Shown here: one piece after another, positions 10,011 to 23,052 of the stretch
How positions within the stretch are numbered: the first letter of the stretch is position 1
How the letters are laid out: each line of letters begins with the position of its first letter
IMG/VR virus record: IMGVR_UViG_3300044837_000155
Location: 1-23,570 of that record
Reading direction: 5' to 3' (one strand)
DNA length: 23,570 bases
Source of the DNA: a virus
Program-made: the position numbers and the translations under genes
The notes under the pieces: model-generated
What the model saw: only the letters and a program-made list of their open reading frames with translations
What the model was told of the DNA's origin: nothing
Databases searched by the model: none

Positions 10011-10655
10011 TCAGTTGCACCACTTCCTGAATGCCCGCTTCCCCACTTCGTAGAGTCGTTGGTCTGTGGTCGCGAAGAACAGCCCCCGCTCGGTGCGCTC
10101 GCCTTCCCGCTTCACGCAATCTTCGATGCACCCATACCACCGTTCGCCGTGATAGCCGGGCAGTGACTTGATCGCCGCCTTGAGATTCCGCGACCCCTCG
10201 CACTTCTCGTAGCCCGCCGCCGTCGCGTTGGTGTCGTGCGCCATGATGCACAGCGGGCGGCGCGTCAGCAGCAGTTCAGTCTCTTTCGCCACCGGCTCCG
10301 CATCGTGATAGGCATCCACCAGCACGAAGTCGAAATGCTCGAACGACGCCAGCACGTCCCACGACGGATCTTTCGTCACCCGTACACGGTCGGGGCTTTT
10401 GCAATTCCGCACCACGTCCCAAAGACTCGCGCGGGGATAGATGTCGCAAAACGTAGCGGTCATCGGCGACCCCACATTGATCGCCTCGACAAACGCGGTG
10501 CTGGACGCGCCGTTGTACGACCCCAGTTCGAGCGCGGCCTGAAACGGCCACGCCGCCAGGATGTCGAAGATGATCCCGACGTGGCGCGGGTCCATCGCGC
10601 CCGCGGGGTCGGCGTAACAGCCTGAATAGTTGCCAACGAAGGGGTACGGGGTCAC
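10011..10655 (-). CDS. Class I SAM-dependent methyltransferase
   Basis: A 214-aa protein with a Rossmann-type SAM site: ALELGSYNGASS at residues 41-52 is motif I (E-x-G-x-x-x-G), and FVLVDAYHDAEPV at 110-122 is the post-strand-4 acidic motif of the small-molecule/sugar methyltransferase group (Methyltransf_24-like). It starts at GTG overlapping the upstream glycosyltransferase stop (GTGA), so it belongs to the same unit. Likely role: methylating a sugar or sugar-linked group made by the two glycosyltransferases. The substrate cannot be read from the sequence. It lacks the DPPY-type motif of DNA amino-methyltransferases. Confidence 0.75.
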   Translation of the reverse strand: MTPYPFVGNYSGCYADPAGAMDPRHVGIIFDILAAWPFQAALELGSYNGASSTAFVEAINVGSPMTATFCDIYPRASLWDVVRNCKSPDRVRVTKDPSWDVLASFEHFDFVLVDAYHDAEPVAKETELLLTRRPLCIMAHDTNATAAGYEKCEGSRNLKAAIKSLPGYHGERWYGCIEDCVKREGERTERGLFFATTDQRLYEVGKRAFRKWCN

Positions 10656-11356
10656 GCCTTCCTCCCTGACTCCGCATATTTGATGATCGCATCAGGCTTC
10701 GATTGGCTCGCGGTGAACTCTGCGAACGACAAAGGTACGTCACCGTAGTCGTGCCAGATTTTAATTGGCCCGAACCACGTCTTGTGCCATAGCGGGCGGA
10801 AATTCCAGTTCATCGGAAGCGTGTAAGGGTTGGTGCCCGTCTGCTCCATCGCCATCGCGAACCCAGCCTGATCGTTTAGCGGCATCCGCTGTACCCCCGA
10901 TGCCGCGTGGAACAGGATGGACGAATCGACCGTGCGATTGAGCACTTGCCATCGGTCGAAAAACGGTTGAGCGGCGTGCGTAAAAAAGACGATGCCCGCG
11001 TTGTACTCAACCATGTCCCCGGAACAGCACTTGTACCGCCGCGCCCATGGGGCTTCGCAAATGCAAACGGCCAGTCCGTGTTTCGCCGCCTTCTCAAATC
11101 CGAAATCCAGTCTGCCCATGACCACCGTGTCGGCGTCAAGGAACAGCGTCTCGTCATACGGCGTCAAGTCGCACATCGCCGCCTTGTCGAGCAGCGTCGA
11201 TTCCCTGGGGAGTCGGACGACGTGGTACGGCAGTTCGGGGTGGAAGATGCTTAGCGAGTCAATCGACCGCGCCAACATCATTTCGGTACGGGATTCGTAG
11301 CCTTCCCAGACGATGTACAACGCGCCTCGGGAGCCGGTGGTGTAGGATTGGCTCAT
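10652..11356 (-). CDS. GT-A-fold glycosyltransferase (GT8-like)
   Basis: A 234-aa cytoplasmic protein starting at the ATG that overlaps the previous stop (ATGA); an in-frame upstream extension lies inside the neighbouring gene. Residues 67-79 (YDETLFLDADTVV) hold the D-A-D metal/nucleotide-sugar motif (D74, D76) characteristic of GT8-like enzymes. VEYNAGIVFF further on and the C-terminal IWHDYGD, with its metal-binding-type His, fit the same fold. No membrane helix. It probably transfers a sugar from a nucleotide donor to phage or host glycan. It sits between another glycosyltransferase and a methyltransferase. The acceptor is unknown. Confidence 0.75.
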   Translation of the reverse strand: MSQSYTTGSRGALYIVWEGYESRTEMMLARSIDSLSIFHPELPYHVVRLPRESTLLDKAAMCDLTPYDETLFLDADTVVMGRLDFGFEKAAKHGLAVCICEAPWARRYKCCSGDMVEYNAGIVFFTHAAQPFFDRWQVLNRTVDSSILFHAASGVQRMPLNDQAGFAMAMEQTGTNPYTLPMNWNFRPLWHKTWFGPIKIWHDYGDVPLSFAEFTASQSKPDAIIKYAESGRKA

Positions 11357-12132
11357 GCCCGCACCTCCCCCTTCGTGCGCTGACGCCATTTTACATAATG
11401 AGTGTGGACCGGCTTGAGGTTCTCGTCGAATTCACTGACAAGAGGTTGCAGGTGTCCAATCGAAACCTTCGGATCTACGTACAGCGTCTTGTTAAAGGCA
11501 CCCCATTTCCGCCAGAAAAATATGTCCGAGTCCACTCGCCCCATCGTCTTGTAGCTGCCATTGTCATCCGGCAGGCCAAGGAACCACGGTTTGGGAACCT
11601 CTTTGAGCGCGTCCAGGCGAATCAGCGTCATGCCGAAGTGCGCCGTATCGGCGCGGATCGGCTCGTCGGTCACCTCCACCTCGCTCTGCCCGTTGAACGT
11701 CATCAACGGCAACTCTTCCGTGCTCCGCTTGCACTGGAGAGCGGCCAAGGCGTCGATGTCACCGCGCCGACCAAACCGTGCGATCAGGTCGGACAGGTTT
11801 TCCGGCGTCATGATGGAGTCATAATCCAGCGTGAGCCCCCAATCGACGCCATCGGCAATGAGGTCTTCCAGCAGATTGGAGATCATGTTCCCCCAAAACG
11901 CGCCGAACCCGAGGCGGATGGGGATTCCAAAGGGGCGGAGCGTTTCCGAAACACACCCCCAGTGTGGATTCCACCCGCACATCGGAACGCTCATAATGGC
12001 GCAAATCTTGATGTCGGCGGTGGCTGGTTCAGGTGCGGCAATGAGTTCGCCCGGAACTCCCGACTTCGTAAGTCTGTCGAAACTTTCTTCCAAGGCGCGA
12101 AGCCGCGCCTCCTGTGTGTCCTGTGTGCTCAT
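11353..12132 (-). CDS. GT-A-type glycosyltransferase (GT2-like)
   Basis: A 259-aa protein. Residues 1-20 look like a short coiled coil. Residues 41-100 form the nucleotide-binding half, and LTLDYDSIMTPENL (100-113) carries the DxD motif (D103, D105). A second acidic pair in GRVDSDIFFW (199-208) and H227 in VSIGHL are in the right order for GT-A active-site residues. The ATG follows TCACACACAGGAACCCA, a clear Shine-Dalgarno. The first codons contain two more copies of CACACAGGA. Likely the first sugar transferase of the cassette; donor and acceptor are unknown. Confidence 0.7.
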   Translation of the reverse strand: MSTQDTQEARLRALEESFDRLTKSGVPGELIAAPEPATADIKICAIMSVPMCGWNPHWGCVSETLRPFGIPIRLGFGAFWGNMISNLLEDLIADGVDWGLTLDYDSIMTPENLSDLIARFGRRGDIDALAALQCKRSTEELPLMTFNGQSEVEVTDEPIRADTAHFGMTLIRLDALKEVPKPWFLGLPDDNGSYKTMGRVDSDIFFWRKWGAFNKTLYVDPKVSIGHLQPLVSEFDENLKPVHTHYVKWRQRTKGEVRA

Positions 12133-12973: not shown

Positions 12974-14470
12974 TTAGGATGCGGCGCTGATGAGTCCGAC
13001 CACGGGGCCGGCGACGGTCGCCGTTCCCACGTCGTGGATGTTCATGTCGATCCGCTCGACGCATCGCAGCGCGACTTGGTTGCGCTCGAACACCGACTGC
13101 CCGCCAACGCTGGCGTGTTCAGAGAACGTCACCATCGTCTGCTGGCGGTCGCCGAAGCTCGCGGCCATCGAGTGGTCGCCAAACGTCGCGGCGATCTGCG
13201 AATTCACATCCGCCGAGGGCATCGTCTGGCTGAACTCGACCGGGTAGCCGAGGAACAGTGGGCGGGGACGCCGGCTACCGGCGCGGACCTCGCTTGCGGT
13301 CACGCCGCCCGCCGCCAGTTCCAACCGCTGCATGGTCCCGTAGTAGAACGAACGGTGCGCGACCCAGCAGGTGCGGTCGTTGTCGGCGTACTGCGGGATG
13401 CGGCCCACGGCCTTGTTGAAGTCGGCGAGCACGAACTCGCTGAACAGGTTGCCCGCCGCCAGCACGACGCCGCCGCCATCATCCACACCGTTGATGCGGA
13501 TCAGCTTCGCGGAGAAGCCTTCGATGCCGCCGTAGGTGGCGCTGGCATCGCCGATGAACGCGCACTGATCTTCGAGAAGAGAGGTCGCGTAGCCGCACTC
13601 GTAGGCGAGCTTGTCGCCAAAGTTGATGATCGCGTCCGCATCGACCTGCTTGGTCATCCGGGTCAGGACCATGATGTCCTTGGCGGTCAGGCGAACGTTG
13701 TCCCAACTGGTCGTACTTTCCGATCCAGCCGCGCCTTCGCCGACGAAACTGGCGGTCAATCCGCCGGTCTGCCGCGGGTCGGTGCGGGTGTCGCTGCTCA
13801 TCGGCACCATCATCAGCACCCGGCGGGCGACGCCGTATTGCTCGCGGAGCACGATCAGGTCGCGTCCGAACTCTTCGGGCACCAGGTAGCCGCCGGTGGT
13901 GTTGACGTTCTCCTGGTGGAGCTTCTGGAGCAGTTCATCGCCGAACGCCTTCTCGACCATGCCGATGCCGTGCTCGGCGCACCACGCTTGGGCGGTGGCG
14001 CTGCCACGGACGGCCAGACCCCACATGCCGAAGCGGTAGGCGCGCTCGTCGGCATCGAAATCGCCGACCTTCTCGGCGGCGAAGTGCTTGGGAGCGCCGA
14101 ACCGCTTGCACTCGGCGGGGATCTTGAAGGACTTGGTCGGATCGCCGCCAGCGCCGGCGTCGAGGGTGGCGTCGGGCTGCTTGATGCGTTTAACGTTCGT
14201 GGGGCTGGCCTTGGCAATCGCGGCCACTTTCGCAGCCACCTTGGTTTCAATTTCCGCTTCGATTTCCGCTTCGGTCTTCACTGGCGCGGTCTTCGTTACT
14301 GAAACCGAAAACGCGATGGGAATTTCTTTGCCATCGGCTTCGCGATAAATTTCGTACTCGTCGTCGATGGCCTTTTGCAGATTTTCCGGCTCTGTGGCGT
14401 GTTTCGCCTTGAGCATGGGCAGAACCGCTTCCTTGAACACGTCAAGGGGGACCTTCTTTTTCTTTGTCAT
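12974..14470 (-). CDS. Major capsid protein, HK97 fold
   Basis: A 498-aa precursor forming the icosahedral shell. The N-terminus is a scaffold-like delta region: Lys-rich start (MTKKKK), then a charged coiled coil (about 66-85, EIEAEIETKVAAKVAAIA). It would be cut off by the prohead protease encoded just upstream. The capsid domain begins near GGYLVPEEFGRDLI (193-206) and continues through RLTAKDIMVLTRMT and IGDASATYGGIEGF, typical HK97-family phrases. The ATG at 14470 follows AAGG (7 nt). The frame is open upstream to 14599, but that part lies in the leader RNA. A promoter and structured leader precede it, consistent with the highest-expressed late gene. Confidence 0.92.
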   Translation of the reverse strand: MTKKKKVPLDVFKEAVLPMLKAKHATEPENLQKAIDDEYEIYREADGKEIPIAFSVSVTKTAPVKTEAEIEAEIETKVAAKVAAIAKASPTNVKRIKQPDATLDAGAGGDPTKSFKIPAECKRFGAPKHFAAEKVGDFDADERAYRFGMWGLAVRGSATAQAWCAEHGIGMVEKAFGDELLQKLHQENVNTTGGYLVPEEFGRDLIVLREQYGVARRVLMMVPMSSDTRTDPRQTGGLTASFVGEGAAGSESTTSWDNVRLTAKDIMVLTRMTKQVDADAIINFGDKLAYECGYATSLLEDQCAFIGDASATYGGIEGFSAKLIRINGVDDGGGVVLAAGNLFSEFVLADFNKAVGRIPQYADNDRTCWVAHRSFYYGTMQRLELAAGGVTASEVRAGSRRPRPLFLGYPVEFSQTMPSADVNSQIAATFGDHSMAASFGDRQQTMVTFSEHASVGGQSVFERNQVALRCVERIDMNIHDVGTATVAGPVVGLISAAS

Positions 14471-14520
14471 GGGATGCCTTGAGAGGAGATTGGATAAGAC
14501 TTTGCGTCCTACCCACTCAA

Positions 14521-14593
14521 GCAGTCGGATCGACTGCCTCTCTAGGCATGGGCTGCGGATGACACGAGCAGCTACGCGGCGGGAACATCCCGC
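14521..14593 (-). promoter_or_regulatory. Structured 5' leader of the capsid mRNA
   Basis: Two perfect hairpins lie in the roughly 130-nt leader: GCGGGA/TCCCGC with 3-nt loop (14593-14579) and GCAGTCG/CGACTGC with 3-nt loop (14537-14521). A small stem GCCT/AGGC just before the second one shares bases with it, so the two could be alternatives. They could protect the capsid mRNA 5' end or tune translation; no known riboswitch class is recognised. Confidence 0.5.
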
Positions 14594-14608
14594 ATTCAAA
14601 TTTTAGTT

Positions 14609-14659: not shown

Positions 14660-16525
14660 TCAAATTTCGATGTAAATCTCGCCGCGCTGTTTGCGGATTT
14701 CGGCGTCCAGGGCCTCTTCGTACATCACTTCGTAAGATTTGCTCATCGGCGGCCCGCAATCGTCGATGTCCATATGGATATATTCCATGGTGGGCAAATC
14801 CTTCTTCTCTGGCACCGACACTTCGGCGACGGCGTATTCCTTTTGGACTGGTTCCGCCAACGATTTCGCGCCCTTTTCGTCCGGATCATCGTCCGCGACG
14901 GGCATTCCGCACTCATCGCAGTAGTAATCGTCGCCATCTGCGGTCATGTCCGCGACAGGATATTTCTTCTCGCATTTGGCGCAGGTGCCCATTTCTGGCT
15001 TGGCGTCGGCGCCGGTGTCCGATTGGCCTTCGGTCATCCCCTTGGCCACCATCGCCCGCGCCGCGCGATTGGTCGGCTTGACGCCTACGCGAAGCCGCGC
15101 TAGCACGTCGGCCACTGGTTCTTTGAGGGCGTAAACCGCCGTCACCAGCTCGCGAAGGTGCCCAAACGACATCCCATCCGTCTCTTTGGCCAGCCGCTTG
15201 ATCTCATCATCCTTCTCGATGCCCTTGAGCTTGTTGAGTAGGTAGGTGTAGCGCCCCTCGTAAGGCGGCGCGTCCACGAACACCTTCTTGTCGAATCGAC
15301 CGGGCCGCAAAAGGCGTTGCGGGAACCGTTCGAGGTAGTTGGTGGTCGCCAGGTAGAGCACGCCGGCGATAGATTGCTCGCCGTCCAACAGTTGAAGAAA
15401 CTGCCGCTCTTCGTACCCGATGTATTCGTCGGCGTCCTCCAGCATAACCACGACCTTACGATCGGGTTCGACCTCGCGGAACTGCTGGAGTCCGGCGGAG
15501 AGCGTTCCGATGCTCTTCGCATAGAATACCACGTCCCCGCGCTCGACAATCATGTCCGCGACCTGATGCAAAACACACGTCTTGCCGGTTCCGGGAGGCC
15601 CGTAGAGCAGCATCCCCCGGTTGTGCATCAGCCCCAGCTTCTCGTAGTCGCCCTTGAGTCCCCAGAACTTGTCGATCTCGCCCAGCGTCTCGGTCATCAC
15701 CGAATTCTCGAAGGTGTAGAGATCATCGGTCTGCGGCTGCATGCGCACGAACGCGACGCCGCTCCACGTCGAGACGATGCGATAGGCGTCTTTCCCCAGC
15801 TTCGGCTCCAGTTCGATGTCTCCGGTCGCCTCGTAGGTGTCGCCGTGCCTGAAATATTGCGAGTAGGTCTGCTGCAACGGCTCGCGCTTCGAGGCTGGCT
15901 TCAAGCCCTTGGCGACGGCCGCGGCGGTCATCGCATCCTTGTGGTACTGGCCAAACACCTTGTCAACGCTTGCCTGTGTCAAGAATCCCTTTCCGACAGC
16001 CTCCACCAATGCTTCGGGGTTGCACGGAAGCGGCACTACGCTCAATTCGAGAAGCGTCCACCGTCCGTGAACGTACTGGCACCCCTCGCCATATTTCGCG
16101 ACATCGCGCGACGTGGCGGCGCGACCATCGACCGGCAAAAATCCCACGCTGACCGCGTTCAGGCCCTTATTTTTGAAGAGCCACCAGAGTGTGTCGGGAA
16201 CCCATTCGATCCCTTCGGGCAACGTCGGCGGGCGCTCTAGGAATTGAAATTTGATGCGCACACCCTCCTCCGTTCGCTGGATCGCCAGCCCCTTCGCGAC
16301 GGGGAGTTTGCTGCCTTCGTGGATGAAGAACACTTGCGGGTTCTTCTCCCACACCTTGCTCAAGCATCCATCAGGCACCAGCACCTCGCCCTCGTGATCC
16401 ACTGCCGCCGTCGAAGCGGTCACGGTCACAGTTCGCGGCTCATCGCCGGATATGCGAACGTCCGTCGAGAACGCCTTTTGGATGGTTTCGAGTTCGGCTT
16501 TGTGCTGGAGGGTGTCAGTTTTCAT
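14660..16525 (-). CDS. Prohead protease fused to AAA+ ATPase and zinc ribbon
   Basis: A 621-aa protein between portal and capsid, the place of the HK97-type maturation protease. Residues about 20-180 are the protease: VFFIHEG supplies candidate catalytic H69, NAVSVGF candidate S126, and LLELSVVPLPCNPEA (157-171) is the family hallmark. After a linker of about 60 aa, residues 273-470 are a classic-clade AAA+ module: Walker A GPPGTGKT (309-316), Walker B VVVMLED (358-364), sensor-1 N396, and RPGRFD (407-412). Its LEDAD form resembles BCS1-like ATPases. C515, C518, C536 and C539 make a zinc ribbon, followed by an acidic tail. Start: ATG 16525; a GTG at 16537 is possible. Prohead proteases normally lack an ATPase and are about 160-250 aa, so this is unusual. 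Presumably ATP-driven handling of capsid or scaffold during maturation; untested. Confidence 0.88.
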   Translation of the reverse strand: MKTDTLQHKAELETIQKAFSTDVRISGDEPRTVTVTASTAAVDHEGEVLVPDGCLSKVWEKNPQVFFIHEGSKLPVAKGLAIQRTEEGVRIKFQFLERPPTLPEGIEWVPDTLWWLFKNKGLNAVSVGFLPVDGRAATSRDVAKYGEGCQYVHGRWTLLELSVVPLPCNPEALVEAVGKGFLTQASVDKVFGQYHKDAMTAAAVAKGLKPASKREPLQQTYSQYFRHGDTYEATGDIELEPKLGKDAYRIVSTWSGVAFVRMQPQTDDLYTFENSVMTETLGEIDKFWGLKGDYEKLGLMHNRGMLLYGPPGTGKTCVLHQVADMIVERGDVVFYAKSIGTLSAGLQQFREVEPDRKVVVMLEDADEYIGYEERQFLQLLDGEQSIAGVLYLATTNYLERFPQRLLRPGRFDKKVFVDAPPYEGRYTYLLNKLKGIEKDDEIKRLAKETDGMSFGHLRELVTAVYALKEPVADVLARLRVGVKPTNRAARAMVAKGMTEGQSDTGADAKPEMGTCAKCEKKYPVADMTADGDDYYCDECGMPVADDDPDEKGAKSLAEPVQKEYAVAEVSVPEKKDLPTMEYIHMDIDDCGPPMSKSYEVMYEEALDAEIRKQRGEIYIEI

Positions 16526-16540
16526 AGTTATACTCACGTC

Positions 16541-16810: not shown

Positions 16811-18688
16811 TCATTTCCCTGCCGCTGGATCTGCTGGCGGACTCGCATCGCTTCCGCCTTGATCGGCGGGTTTCGGCGCGGCGTCGCCCGCCGACTCATC
16901 GCGGGTGATTGTGATCTGCTCGGGTGGCGCGTCCCCAGGTCCACCGCCCACGATAGCGCCGCTCTTGTCAACTTTGATGTCGCCATTGACGACGGGACCC
17001 GTGGTGGACACCACCGGAAGGTAAGGGCCATCCTTATATTCTTCGTTGCGCGGGATGCCAACTTGGTCGGTCAACTCGTCCAGCGCCGTCATGTTCGCCA
17101 GCACGTCGTTCACGGTCCCGTCTTTCAAGAACGCGAGATATACCTCCCGCTTGAACTGCGCCTCAGATTCTTCTCGCGCGCCGGCACCATCCACTTTCGG
17201 CATCGACGCGACCGCCTTGCCCTTGCGGAGAGATTTCCCGCACTCTCCGCAATAAACGGCGTGAACCGGATTCTGATGGCCGCAACCGCAAAGGCCCTTC
17301 CGGTCCGGCCGCTCATCGTTCTGTTCAGAGGACATATTCCCGATCGCCGCAGCGCTCCCACCCGTGTTCCCAGCCGGCGGATAGAGGAAGTCAGCGCCCT
17401 CCGCGTCCTGATACCCCAGCTCCTGCCGCCCTTCGTTGGGGCTGACGATCCCGCCCGCCACCAAGGCCACAACTTCCTTCGTCACCGCCGCGCGGTCCTC
17501 GAAGGAAACGTGGTCATAGCAGACGAAATAGTCATCGGAACCCGCGAACCGGGGGATGTACCGCTGGTTCAACTTCTGCTCATCGCGCAGACAGTCGGGC
17601 CGCACGGTGCCGCGGTAGAAGTTCAGCCGCGCGTTGTCGCCCCCAGAACGATTGGGGTCGTTGGACAGCAGCCACGATACGGGGACGCCCGATCCCGCCG
17701 CGATTTCCTCGATCAGGCGCGTCGGCGTGCCCAATTCCTTCGGTTCCCATTGCAGCGCGGTGGCCTTCAGCTTGCCGTTGGTGACCAGGAACTTGCCGCT
17801 GTTCTCCGGCCCGCGGAACCGCTCCTGCATTGCGGTTTGCAGCCGCGCCATGGTGTCCTTGTCGCCGCCGTCGGTGGAGAGCACCCAATCCGGCCGGCTC
17901 ATGTTGTCTTTGAACGCGGTATCTTCCGTGCGCTTGGCGTTGTGCAACCCCAGCGCCAGCCAACACGCTTCATACCAGCCCATGCCGTAGAACAGCCCGC
18001 CCTCTTTGGGGTTGGGCATCCGGAAATGATCGACTTCCGCCTCCGAAAACTCGACTTCGTTGGCGGTATTCTTGCCATAGACGTAGCCAGCCACCCGGTT
18101 CTCGCCGCTTTTGGCCATGTTGGGCTTGATCGTGGTCCATTGCGGTGGCAGGCGGTAGATCAGCCGCGGCGTCCCCAGCCGCGACTCCACGTAGTAAACC
18201 CAGTGATTCCCGGTGATTTGCTGGTCAAGGAAGCGGTCCACCGTCATTTCGTAGCCGTTTTCGTTGGGATTGGGCTCCTGGAGCAGCAACATCGCCGGGT
18301 GCGGCTCGATCACCTCTTCAACTTCGTACCCCCAAGCCGCCATCTTCGCCGACACCGCGCGGCTCGGCTTCAATTCTGCGCCGCCCGCGAGATAGCGCAT
18401 CGCCGCATCTTTCACGCGCCGCGTCTCATACAGCTTTCGCCCACCACTCGACGGGCGCCGTCGCGCGAACATCCGCAGCGGCACGCCCGCGGCCGCGTTG
18501 GCTCGGATGGTCGCCGCCGCATACGCCCAGTGGTGAAACTGGCGGACCGCGAGGTGGTAGTTGAACGGGCGCGGCTTTGCGCCCTTGCTCCCATACCCCT
18601 CCATGAAGATCGACCCCGCGAGGTACGGCTCCGCAGAGAGGCCCTTGGTTTCGGCGCTGAAGGTGTCGGTGGTGGCGAGGGTGGTCAA
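16811..18688 (-). CDS. Portal protein, HK97 family, with C-terminal zinc ribbon
   Basis: A 625-aa subunit of the dodecameric ring at the packaging vertex, through which DNA enters and to which terminase and connector bind. Family phrases occur in order: HPAMLLLQEPNPNENGYEM (130-148), TGNHWVYYV, YRLPPQWTTIKPN, the EVDHFRMPNPKEGGLFYGMG block (218-237), GTPTRLIEEIAAGSGVP (320-336), then the stem/crown helices to about 430. The C-terminal 180 residues are extra: a zinc ribbon (C467, C469, C480, C483), a helical segment (VYLAFLKDGTVNDVLANM), and a disordered Pro/Gly/Asp tail. The ATG overlaps the previous stop by ATGA. HK97 portals are usually about 400-450 aa, so the tail is long. Confidence 0.92.
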   Translation of the reverse strand: MTTLATTDTFSAETKGLSAEPYLAGSIFMEGYGSKGAKPRPFNYHLAVRQFHHWAYAAATIRANAAAGVPLRMFARRRPSSGGRKLYETRRVKDAAMRYLAGGAELKPSRAVSAKMAAWGYEVEEVIEPHPAMLLLQEPNPNENGYEMTVDRFLDQQITGNHWVYYVESRLGTPRLIYRLPPQWTTIKPNMAKSGENRVAGYVYGKNTANEVEFSEAEVDHFRMPNPKEGGLFYGMGWYEACWLALGLHNAKRTEDTAFKDNMSRPDWVLSTDGGDKDTMARLQTAMQERFRGPENSGKFLVTNGKLKATALQWEPKELGTPTRLIEEIAAGSGVPVSWLLSNDPNRSGGDNARLNFYRGTVRPDCLRDEQKLNQRYIPRFAGSDDYFVCYDHVSFEDRAAVTKEVVALVAGGIVSPNEGRQELGYQDAEGADFLYPPAGNTGGSAAAIGNMSSEQNDERPDRKGLCGCGHQNPVHAVYCGECGKSLRKGKAVASMPKVDGAGAREESEAQFKREVYLAFLKDGTVNDVLANMTALDELTDQVGIPRNEEYKDGPYLPVVSTTGPVVNGDIKVDKSGAIVGGGPGDAPPEQITITRDESAGDAAPKPADQGGSDASPPADPAAGK

Positions 18689-20044: not shown

Positions 20045-22888
20045 CTAGACAATCGCAAAAGTAAACGTGCTCGCCGGCTCACCGGTAATCCCGCGCCCCA
20101 GCCCCATGATCGCCGCGACCACGCCGTCAATTTTCTTCCGGTGCTGGTTCTCGGGCTTGATCGGCCGCATGTTTCCCGCCTCATCGCGCTTCACCGCCGC
20201 GTTGCCCATCATCCATCGCATCACCGCATTGCCGTCGTGCGCCAGCCCGCCACTCACGATCAGCCGCTCGAACTCCTTGCACGGCTCGTTCATCGAGATC
20301 ATCCCCTGCCGGAACTCCACCATCTTGATTCCGTGGTGATCTTGCAGGCGGTTGCTGGTCGAAACACACTGCCAGGGGTCGAACGCGACATCCTCCACCG
20401 CATACTCGCCGCACAACTCCACGATCCGCGCCTCGACGATGTCGTAATCCGTCACGTTCCCCGGCGTCTGCACCACCAGCCCGCGCGTCGTCCACTCCGC
20501 ATAGGGGATGCGGTCCAACCGTTCCCGCTCCGCCGCAGAAGCCTCAGGAATCCAGAAGAATGCCAGCACCCGCCACTTCGGGTCCTCCTCGGTCGGCGGG
20601 AACATCAGGACGAACGCCGTCAGGTCGAGCTTGGAAGAGAGATCCAGCCCGCCGAAGCACTTGCGGCCCTTCAACCGCGACACGTCGAACGTCGGGTCTT
20701 TGCACAGGTCCCACGTCTCCACCGGAATCCACGCCTCAACCTGGTCGGTCCAGATGTTCAGGTGTTTGCGAAGAAACTTGTTGCGCTCCGAAGGGATCGA
20801 TTGTGCCTTGAGGCACTTGTCGGCTAGGTCGTCCGGCTTGACCGACACCCCATAGTTTGGGTTGGCCTTGCGCCACACCTCGGGGTCCGCCCAGTCATCA
20901 TCCTTTTCAGCAGCACTTATCAGGGCAAAAAACGAATCGTTGCGCACCCCATCCTCTTTATCGAAGTCATTCAGCAACTTCTCCGCGTATTCGTGCATCG
21001 TTCCGCAGAACGAATCGGGGTCACTGCCCGCGGTGGTGATCCCGATAATCATCGGCTGACGCCGCGCGCCCGTCGCCGTCTCGATCACACTCCACATCCC
21101 GTTGTCGCGATGCTCGTGCAGCTCATCTCCGATGCCGCCATGAACGTTCAAGCCATCCTGGGTCTTGCTGTCAGCCCCCAGCGGCTCCCACTTCGACGCC
21201 GCCTTCATGTAGGCGATGTTGTTGACGTACTTGCCGCCCGAAACGTGCAGCCGGCTCTTGAGAGATGTCGAAGCGCCGACGAATGCCGCCGCGTCGGTCA
21301 TGACGATCCGCGACTGTTCCTTTTTGGTCGCGAAGCTGTAAACTTCCGCCCCCGGCTCACCATCGCCCATCAGCAGATAAAGGCCGACACCAGAGATCAG
21401 GGTGGTGTTGTGCGTCGGCACCATTCCCTCGCCCGCGAGATACAGGCGGGACGGAGAATCAACCTGAATGCAGCGGACCGGTACGGATTCTATGGGGTTG
21501 ACGGCGACGATCTGCCGGAAACTTGAGCGGGCCACCATTGCAGGACGCGGCTTCTGCCTTGTCGTCTTCCTTCTAAGGCGAAACACTGGTCGATCGGCGT
21601 AGGCGTGGAAGATGATTCTGAACTTTTCCCCGCAGTCCTCGCCGTAGATGGTCGCGCGGGCCGTTTTAATGACAGGCTTGAATCCAAGACTCCTCGCAAG
21701 TTCCAGAAATCCGTCGCGGAGCGCCACGCTCGTCGTTGTAAACTCGCACTGACCAGACTTGCCGCAATAACCGTCCGTGTCCATAAGCCCTTGGATCATG
21801 GCGGTTCGCTGTCGAACGGACCCGCGAAGGTAGGCGGCCGGGATATGTTTGTTGTTGAGCAGGTTCAAATCGCGCAGGGCTGATCGGAGCGGATTTGCTC
21901 GCCCCTTGGCCGATCGATGGCCAACGGGACTGATCGTTGCCGTAACCGCGTTACTGCGACGGTCGCGATTCCAAACGCCAAGGCAAACCCCAGCATCGCG
22001 AAGGTGGCTGACCAGCTCATCTTCTGCGCCATCGAACGTCAGGCGGTTGCAAGCAGAATGGCCGTCGCCCAGCCAAGCCCCCAAGACATAGGGGTCGATG
22101 GGAAATTCGCGATCTTCGCACTCAATCGCATCTGCAACGGGGATTCGATGGTTGTATTCAGGAATGCCGCTCCGCAGATGCGATGGACGAGATACAAGCA
22201 GCGTTCGCCGAATGTCCACCGTCGTCTTCGCGATTGGCTTCGGGCCAGCGTTCTTTCCGCCACGCCCTTTCAACCGATCACGGTCCGTTCGTGCATCGGT
22301 GAGCCAAAGGTGCTCGGCATCTGCAACAACAGAAGTCCCATCCGAAAACTTAACTTGGTAGCAATCGCGCCCGTGCATCATGTCGGTCGCAAACGTCACG
22401 CAGCACTGCTGGCCTCGCTCGTCAAATACAACGTCGCCAACTTTCAAGTCGCCCATTGCGACCCAACCCGTTGGCGTTGGGATCGGTGTATCAATCGCCA
22501 AGGCCTTCCCATTTTTGCGGGGAACCTCGATATATCCCTGCCGAAACCGCCGCGTCCCATCCGCGCGCTTCCACCCGAACAGCACCCATAGGATGAACGC
22601 CTGCCATGGCTCTGGGCGGATCACCTCGCCGGGAAGCCCATTCTTCGGCCCCCACTCCCCTTTCCAGTGCCGAAGGAAGCCGAAGAACCGGATCACCCGC
22701 GCCGCCGCCTCCTCATCGAACCACAACCCGCGCTCTTCCGCGTGCTCCAGGTCGTGAACCTGCCGCTTGACCGCCGCGATCACCAGCCGCGCCGCCGGCA
22801 CAGTGCCATCCAGCACCCCGTCCATGTACTCGCGCACCACGGAAGCGGGATCGGCAAAAACCTGGGGTTGGTCGAGGGTGGCGGTCAT
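20045..22888 (-). CDS. Terminase large subunit precursor, interrupted by an intein
   Basis: DNA-packaging motor ATPase and nuclease of the HK97/Terminase_1 type: 947-aa precursor, 581 aa after splicing. The P-loop IEVPRKNGK / TTLISG is split exactly by the intein (residues 129-494). Walker B is GGIGDELHEH (D588, E589), followed by the ATG-x-RRQPMIIGITTAG block. The nuclease domain shows GGLDLSSKLDLTAF (D749, D755) and a late acidic residue in KKIDGVVAAI (D921). Start: the ATG at 22888 overlaps the previous stop as ATGA; a GTG at 22924 lies inside the upstream gene and is less likely. Without splicing the ATPase site would be broken, so packaging depends on the intein's activity. Confidence 0.92.
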   Translation of the reverse strand: MTATLDQPQVFADPASVVREYMDGVLDGTVPAARLVIAAVKRQVHDLEHAEERGLWFDEEAAARVIRFFGFLRHWKGEWGPKNGLPGEVIRPEPWQAFILWVLFGWKRADGTRRFRQGYIEVPRKNGKALAIDTPIPTPTGWVAMGDLKVGDVVFDERGQQCCVTFATDMMHGRDCYQVKFSDGTSVVADAEHLWLTDARTDRDRLKGRGGKNAGPKPIAKTTVDIRRTLLVSRPSHLRSGIPEYNHRIPVADAIECEDREFPIDPYVLGAWLGDGHSACNRLTFDGAEDELVSHLRDAGVCLGVWNRDRRSNAVTATISPVGHRSAKGRANPLRSALRDLNLLNNKHIPAAYLRGSVRQRTAMIQGLMDTDGYCGKSGQCEFTTTSVALRDGFLELARSLGFKPVIKTARATIYGEDCGEKFRIIFHAYADRPVFRLRRKTTRQKPRPAMVARSSFRQIVAVNPIESVPVRCIQVDSPSRLYLAGEGMVPTHNTTLISGVGLYLLMGDGEPGAEVYSFATKKEQSRIVMTDAAAFVGASTSLKSRLHVSGGKYVNNIAYMKAASKWEPLGADSKTQDGLNVHGGIGDELHEHRDNGMWSVIETATGARRQPMIIGITTAGSDPDSFCGTMHEYAEKLLNDFDKEDGVRNDSFFALISAAEKDDDWADPEVWRKANPNYGVSVKPDDLADKCLKAQSIPSERNKFLRKHLNIWTDQVEAWIPVETWDLCKDPTFDVSRLKGRKCFGGLDLSSKLDLTAFVLMFPPTEEDPKWRVLAFFWIPEASAAERERLDRIPYAEWTTRGLVVQTPGNVTDYDIVEARIVELCGEYAVEDVAFDPWQCVSTSNRLQDHHGIKMVEFRQGMISMNEPCKEFERLIVSGGLAHDGNAVMRWMMGNAAVKRDEAGNMRPIKPENQHRKKIDGVVAAIMGLGRGITGEPASTFTFAIV
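21407..22504 (-). mobile_element. Class 3-type intein with LAGLIDADG homing endonuclease in terminase P-loop
   Basis: A 366-aa in-frame insert between Lys and Thr of the terminase Walker A motif. It starts with Ala instead of Cys/Ser and ends VPTHN before Thr(+1). Block A (LAIDTPIPTPTGW), block B (DGTSVVADAEHLWLTD), block F (VRCIQVDSPS) and block G are all present. The W67-C345-T364 set matches the WCT motif of class 3 inteins, in which the block F Cys replaces the first-residue nucleophile, and +1 is Thr as expected. The endonuclease has both dodecapeptides, YVLGAWLGDG (139-148, D147) and MIQGLMDTDG (236-245, D244), so homing may be intact. Boundaries were checked codon by codon. Confidence 0.92.
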
Positions 22889-23052
22889 TTGAATCGAGTC
22901 AGGTCGTCCAACTCGCGCAACCACTCAGGCGGAACTTCTTTCGCGACTTCGGCATAACGGGCAATCGCCTCAAGGATGTCCGTGATGCGCATTTTGACGT
23001 GCAACCAACGGGGCATCAGTCCAAGTGGCGGCTTGCGCAGTTCTTCACTCAT
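22885..23052 (-). CDS. Small protein between terminase subunits (55 aa)
   Basis: Overlaps the terminase small-subunit stop and the large-subunit start, each by ATGA, so all three are translationally coupled. It has a basic N-terminus (LMPRWLHVKMRI) and a helical acidic C-terminal half (EAIARYAEVAKEVPPEWLRE). No family recognised. Its place suggests a packaging accessory, but that is only positional. Confidence 0.7.
   Translation of the reverse strand: MSEELRKPPLGLMPRWLHVKMRITDILEAIARYAEVAKEVPPEWLRELDDLTRFK

What the first reader, a model, noticed from the sequence alone, without database searches (positions are those of the whole stretch)
14660..16525. Capsid maturation protease fused to a classic AAA+ ATPase and a zinc ribbon
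One ORF joins an HK97-type prohead protease (H69, S126, ELSVVPLPCNPEA hallmark) to a complete AAA+ module (GPPGTGKT, LEDAD, sensor-1 Asn, RPGRFD) and a C4 zinc ribbon. Known prohead proteases are ATP-independent and short. The architecture recalls FtsH- or Lon-like AAA+ proteases rebuilt from phage parts, and could mean ATP-powered unfolding or removal of scaffold or delta domains, or a chaperone role in prohead assembly. All catalytic motifs look intact and there is no frameshift, so it is unlikely to be a chance read-through.
Basis: partly seen in the sequence, partly recalled or inferred. Interest (0 to 1): 0.87.

Follow-up and report, generated by a model that had tools for sequence, protein, structure and literature searches.

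The report
Phage capsid protease with inserted ATPase
In one uncultured phage, probably of planctomycete-type bacteria, the enzyme that trims the new capsid carries an extra ATP-driven chaperone-like module in its middle, an arrangement seen in none of about 100 related enzymes, so it may be a first direct link between such phage ATPases and head assembly.

Summary
ORF 14660-16537 (-) encodes an HK97-type prohead protease, an intact classic AAA+ module, a C4 zinc ribbon and a C-terminal tail, between portal and capsid genes. Comparison shows its origin. About 100 distinct relatives of the protease with complete 3' ends lack the ATPase; the usual form is a ~175-aa protease plus a ~45-aa end, most often closing in GxIY. 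Four relatives have the zinc ribbon too, and one (L182) joins protease to zinc ribbon by 12-15 residues where the window has ~315. So a phage ATPase was inserted in frame inside the protease gene. Both junctions lead back to the same capsid locus, which makes an assembly error very unlikely, though only one contig shows it. The ATPase belongs to a family that is otherwise nearly always a stand-alone protein of large phages, often among DNA-metabolism genes. Its fold is nearest Bcs1 and YjoB. It lacks an aromatic pore loop, and the protease precedes it, so an FtsH/Lon-like unfolding protease is not the likely mechanism. A tethered chaperone for folded head proteins is my best guess, unproven. 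A published idea that phage BCS1 proteins help head assembly now has a physical link that can be tested.

The parts
14660..16537 (-). whole ORF, 625 aa (GTG start; 621 aa from ATG at 16525)
15968..16480 (-). HK97-type prohead protease domain, residues 20-190, with H73 (16319-16321) and S130 (16148-16150)
   Evidence: TIGR01543, phrog_80; 55% identical to L073 protease, whose PF04586 score passes the gathering cut-off; top viral fold match COG3740 head maturation protease
14999..15949 (-). inserted segment, residues about 197-513, absent from all relatives of the protease
15698..15895 (-). N-terminal part of the ATPase cassette, residues 215-280, shared with stand-alone phage ATPases; low model confidence
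15068..15691 (-). AAA+ ATPase core, residues 283-490: Walker A 15578-15601, Walker B region 15425-15454, sensor 1 at 15338-15340, RPGRFD 15290-15307
   Evidence: PF00004; fold nearest Bcs1/YjoB by Foldseek
14909..14983 (-). C4 zinc ribbon, residues 519-543, also in L073, L078, L084, L182
14663..14734 (-). C-terminal helix and tail, residues 602-625, ending RGEIYIEI; a GxIY-like end in 62 of 100 relatives
15929..15931 (-). internal ATG (M203) behind AAGGA, a possible second start for a free ATPase; weak, about 2 of 18 ATGs have such a context
   Evidence: sequence inspection
12974..14599 (-). major capsid protein (likely ATG start at about 14470), 73% identical to L073
   Evidence: PF05065
16811..18688 (-). 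portal protein
   Evidence: PF04860
20045..22924 (-). terminase large subunit, interrupted by an intein
   Evidence: PF20441, PF03354, PF14528, PF05204
23049..23525 (-). terminase small subunit
   Evidence: PF05119

Best explanation
This is the prohead protease of a tailed phage into which a whole Bcs1/YjoB-like phage ATPase was inserted, at the linker between the catalytic domain and the zinc ribbon and tail (shown by comparison). The protease part most likely still does its ancestral job: it enters the growing prohead and cuts the N-terminal domain off the capsid protein (inferred from homology and gene position). The ATPase most likely forms a ring and acts as a chaperone or remodeller on folded head proteins, for example portal, capsomers or protease assemblies, brought to the place of assembly by the protease, and not as a motor that threads unfolded chains into the protease (inferred). 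HK97-type proteases are known to digest themselves (my knowledge), so the ATPase may be freed once the prohead matures (speculative). The architecture and its origin I hold at about 0.9; the number below is for the whole statement with its mechanism.
For: Gene order TerS-TerL-portal-this-capsid. Protease core 55% identical to L073 and 57% to L075. L073, L078, L084 and L182 are protease + zinc ribbon + tail without ATPase. L182 reads FGYEAKGEGEEEDDKPEMGTC where the window reads FG-[about 315 aa]-DAKPEMGTC. The ATPase cassette matches stand-alone phage ATPases over its length (L006, 44% over residues 212-483) and keeps 34 of 39 columns conserved in at least 90% of 31 relatives. Nearest PDB folds by Foldseek are Bcs1 and YjoB. 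No aromatic-hydrophobic-Gly pore loop; the aligned site reads KSIG. Bcs1 moves folded proteins in a concerted cycle (PMC10567702). A review proposes that phage BCS1 proteins translocate folded proteins packaged into the head (PMC7824862).
Against: Nothing here shows that the ATPase works in head assembly: its stand-alone relatives often lie among DNA-metabolism genes. The fusion is seen in one contig only. By VIA-align the ATPase is as close to p97, Drg1 and spastin, most of which thread chains, as to YjoB and Bcs1 (Z 17.8 to 20.3). No transmembrane part as in Bcs1 was recognised.
Confidence: 0.45

Rival explanations
1. Passenger or cargo. The ATPase has its own job, as in its stand-alone relatives, and the fusion only serves co-expression or packaging into the head; self-cleavage by the protease, or a second start at M203, gives a free ATPase.
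For: Stand-alone relatives near polymerase, primase, clamp loader and ssDNA-binding genes. Insert sits in a flexible linker next to low-confidence segments. ATG M203 behind AAGGA lies where stand-alone ATPases begin.
Against: No cleavage site was identified; the AAGGA context is found at about 2 of 18 ATGs of the gene and is weak; the zinc ribbon and protease tail would stay on the freed ATPase.
Confidence: 0.3
2. ATP-powered maturation protease. The ring unfolds or pulls the capsid protein's N-terminal domain and feeds it to the fused protease, as in FtsH, Lon or Clp machines.
For: Intact catalytic residues and ATPase motifs in one chain. ClpP-like genes lie near relatives of the ATPase in L022, L034, L042 and L043.
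Against: Order is opposite to FtsH and Lon. No aromatic pore loop. About 100 relatives do the job without ATPase.
Confidence: 0.12
3. Assembly chimera or another contig artefact that joined two phages.
For: Only one contig; the closest relative L075 ends exactly at residue 195 of the protease, so it cannot confirm.
Against: Two junctions, both in frame, return to the same protease's zinc ribbon and tail and then to the matching capsid gene; base composition is even (57-61% GC).
Confidence: 0.05

Closest known systems
HK97-type prohead protease (Peptidase_S78, PF04586; TIGR01543)
   Same: Homologous protease domain with invariant His and Ser, same place between portal and capsid genes, GxIY-like C-terminal end as in many relatives
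   Different: Relatives are mostly about 220 aa and none of about 100 checked carries an ATPase
Bcs1 and YjoB AAA+ ATPases
   Same: Nearest solved folds of the ATPase core by Foldseek (6u1y, 8t14, 7w42)
   Different: No membrane anchor or Bcs1-specific domain recognised; fused to a protease and a zinc ribbon
Stand-alone phage AAA+ ATPases (phrog_7485 and relatives; BCS1-like proteins of large phages)
   Same: Same cassette including the N-terminal part; 44% identity to L006
   Different: There nearly always a protein of its own of about 260-390 aa; phiXF1 has a different, 1338-aa fusion
FtsH, Lon and Clp AAA+ proteases
   Same: ATPase and protease acting in one complex is conceivable
   Different: Other domain order (FtsH, Lon), other protease fold, no aromatic pore loop
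Prohead protease fused to capsid or scaffold protein (for example NF045541, lambda C/Nu3)
   Same: Prohead protease as part of a larger fusion
   Different: The partner there is structural, not an ATPase

Membership tests
HK97-type prohead protease (S78) | Sequence homology to the protease family | tested here: met
   TIGR01543 E 5e-6 (below its curated cut-off), phrog_80 E 1e-10; 55%-identical L073 passes the PF04586 gathering score
HK97-type prohead protease (S78) | Catalytic His and Ser | tested here: met
   H73 and S130 invariant in a 16-row alignment
HK97-type prohead protease (S78) | Gene between portal and major capsid protein | tested here: met
HK97-type prohead protease (S78) | Cleaves capsid protein and itself in the prohead | not testable with these tools
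   needs the bench
Classic AAA+ ATPase (PF00004) | Walker A, Walker B region, sensor 1, arginine fingers | tested here: met
   PF00004 E 1e-14; conserved columns kept
Bcs1-like AAA ATPase | Core fold nearest to Bcs1/YjoB | tested here: inconclusive
   Top in Foldseek, but tied with p97, Drg1 and spastin in VIA-align
Bcs1-like AAA ATPase | N-terminal membrane helix and Bcs1-specific domain | tested here: inconclusive
   Residues 217-262 are low confidence; none recognised, no dedicated membrane-helix test run
FtsH/Lon-type AAA+ protease | Protease domain C-terminal to the ATPase | tested here: not met
   Protease residues 20-190, ATPase 283-490
FtsH/Lon-type AAA+ protease | Aromatic-hydrophobic-Gly pore loop 1 | tested here: not met
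   KSIG in the window, mostly a Pro-containing loop in relatives
Stand-alone phage ATPase family | Homology over the whole cassette | tested here: met
   Residues 212-483 align with L006 at 44%
Stand-alone phage ATPase family | Encoded as a separate gene | tested here: not met
   Cassette lies inside the protease ORF

The most novel reading that the evidence does not exclude
A capsid maturation enzyme that uses ATP: a ring of protease-ATPase chains works inside or at the prohead and couples ATP hydrolysis to removal of the capsid protein's N-terminal domain or to portal or protease remodelling, a step thought (my knowledge) to run without ATP in the tailed phages studied so far.
Probability: 0.2. 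Interest if true: 0.85.

Novelty: new variant of a known kind. Interest (0 to 1): 0.62.

Why it matters
Bcs1-like ATPases occur in many large phages and their role is unknown; one review guessed at head assembly (PMC7824862). A natural fusion to the prohead protease ties such an ATPase physically to head assembly and gives a single protein in which ATPase and protease mutants can be compared. It also shows the linker between a prohead protease and its tail as a place that takes up domains stepwise: a zinc ribbon in a few relatives, then an ATPase.

Tried and rejected
Single-protein scans with the whole ORF and with the portal found no relative. A first genome scan found none. Papers on prohead protease with AAA gave no precedent; absence from this library proves little. 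Joint alignment A6 put the ATPases in the wrong register and was discarded; A9 was checked and used. The protease alone, folded without an alignment, failed (pLDDT 37). The solved-structure fold lists were filled by AAA domains, so the protease was not compared with solved structures; its viral match is the evidence for its fold. No fused homologue in two draws of about 390 genomes each, by phylum and by class around planctomycete genomes, or in plasmids. Intron or intein origin of the insert was considered and rejected: no such domain, and it aligns throughout with ATPases.

Full report
ORF 14660-16537 on the minus strand is open for 625 codons (621 from the ATG at 16525, which agrees with relatives beginning MKTP). 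It lies between portal and major capsid protein in the order TerS, TerL, portal, this ORF, capsid. The window is itself one 23,570-base virus record.

The protease half is genuine. TIGR01543 matches residues 63-181 (E 5e-6, below that model's curated cut-off) and phrog_80, head maturation protease, residues 1-190 (E 1e-10). Relatives 55-57% identical were found in virus contigs, and the L073 relative passes Pfam's cut-off for Peptidase_S78. H73 and S130 are invariant in a 16-row alignment. The best match among predicted viral structures is a COG3740 head maturation protease.

The ATPase half is genuine. PF00004 matches residues 309-422 (E 1e-14). Together with about 70 residues before it, the module aligns with a family of phage ATPases found in up to 67 virus contigs, the weakest of them distant, and in huge-phage records. 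Nearly all the close ones are stand-alone proteins of 260-390 aa; L039 and L040 are longer and were not resolved, and Xanthomonas phage phiXF1 has the module at the end of a 1338-aa protein. The window keeps 34 of 39 columns conserved in at least 90% of 31 relatives, within the range the relatives show among themselves.

How the fusion arose is clear from the relatives. I collected 175 loci with the protease from virus contigs and bacterial genomes, 106 distinct cores, 100 with a complete 3' end. The typical protein is a protease of about 175 residues with a C-terminal rest of median 47 residues; 62 of 100 end in a GxIY-like motif. No ORF in any of these loci matches the ATPase family. Four relatives, L073, L078, L084 and L182, carry a zinc ribbon between protease and tail. 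L182 reads FGYEAKGEGEEEDDKPEMGTCSGC; the window reads FG, then about 315 residues with the ATPase, then DAKPEMGTCAKC. The protease tree puts the window in one well-supported set with L073 and L075 inside the group that holds all zinc-ribbon members included. The closest relative by terminase, L075, ends at residue 195, so whether it has the insert is unknown.

An assembly error would need two jumps, both in frame, the second returning to the same protease's zinc ribbon and to a capsid gene that matches L073 at 73%. I hold that very unlikely but cannot exclude it from one contig. Base composition is even across the ORF.

What the ATPase does is inferred. Foldseek's nearest solved folds are Bcs1 and YjoB; VIA-align ranks Drg1, p97, spastin, YjoB and Bcs1 within about two and a half Z units of each other, so the clade is not settled by structure. 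The site of the substrate-gripping pore loop reads KSIG in the window and mostly a Pro-containing loop in relatives. Bcs1 transports a folded protein in a concerted cycle, unlike threading AAA motors (PMC10567702, PMC11143374, PMC12219900). The protease precedes the ATPase, opposite to FtsH and Lon (my knowledge of those families). These points speak against an unfolding protease machine and for action on folded partners.

Context of stand-alone relatives is mixed. Neighbours include DNA polymerase, primase, clamp loader and ssDNA-binding protein genes, and a thymidylate synthase in L006, which suggests that the ATPase is not a head gene by origin. In L022 and L034 a ClpP-like gene lies two genes upstream, and in L042 and L043 directly downstream of a distant ATPase relative; this hints at a partnership with proteases but rests on few loci. 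A review of jumbo phages proposes that phage BCS1 proteins may translocate folded proteins into the head (PMC7824862).

Hosts: relatives of the protease in bacterial genomes that score best come from Planctomycetota, mainly Phycisphaerae, so the phage probably infects that group; this is indirect. Genome searches there found proteases and ATPases but never both in one frame.

Verdict: a real, so far singular insertion of a phage ATPase into a prohead protease. The architecture is well supported; the mechanism is a guess between tethered chaperone, passenger, and, less likely, ATP-powered protease.

Noticed in passing
window 20045-22924 (-): Terminase large subunit holds an intein of about 365 aa with a LAGLIDADG-type homing endonuclease match, inserted right after the Walker-A-like PRKNGK; relatives L073, L075 and L078 have terminases of normal length.
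   Followed up: partly
window 16811-18688 (-): The portal protein's C-terminal part also has a zinc-ribbon-like motif (CGCGHQNPVHAVYCGECGK); the L073 portal stops just before it.
   Followed up: no
window 10011-12132 (-): Three genes between capsid and head-tail connector genes, one with a methyltransferase match (PF13578); the gene at 11353-12132 has counterparts in L073, L077 and L078.
   Followed up: no
L022, L034, L042, L043: ClpP-like protease genes lie next to or near genes of the stand-alone ATPase family.
   Followed up: partly
L002:4950-8966: Xanthomonas phage phiXF1 carries the same ATPase module at the end of a 1338-aa protein whose first 1000 residues match no family searched.
   Followed up: partly
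C-terminal ends of prohead proteases in L073-L247: A short GxIY-like end is widespread in this protease family, even after inserts; it might be a docking tag for the capsid protein.
   Followed up: partly
L003:5176-6570 and L039, L040: The clamp loader in L003 looks interrupted by an intein, and the ATPases in L039 and L040 are about twice the usual length, perhaps for the same reason.
   Followed up: no
Bradyrhizobium plasmids, for example NZ_CP030054.1:442875-443639: Relatives of the ATPase module, 34% identical over residues 228-482, sit on large Bradyrhizobium plasmids.
   Followed up: no
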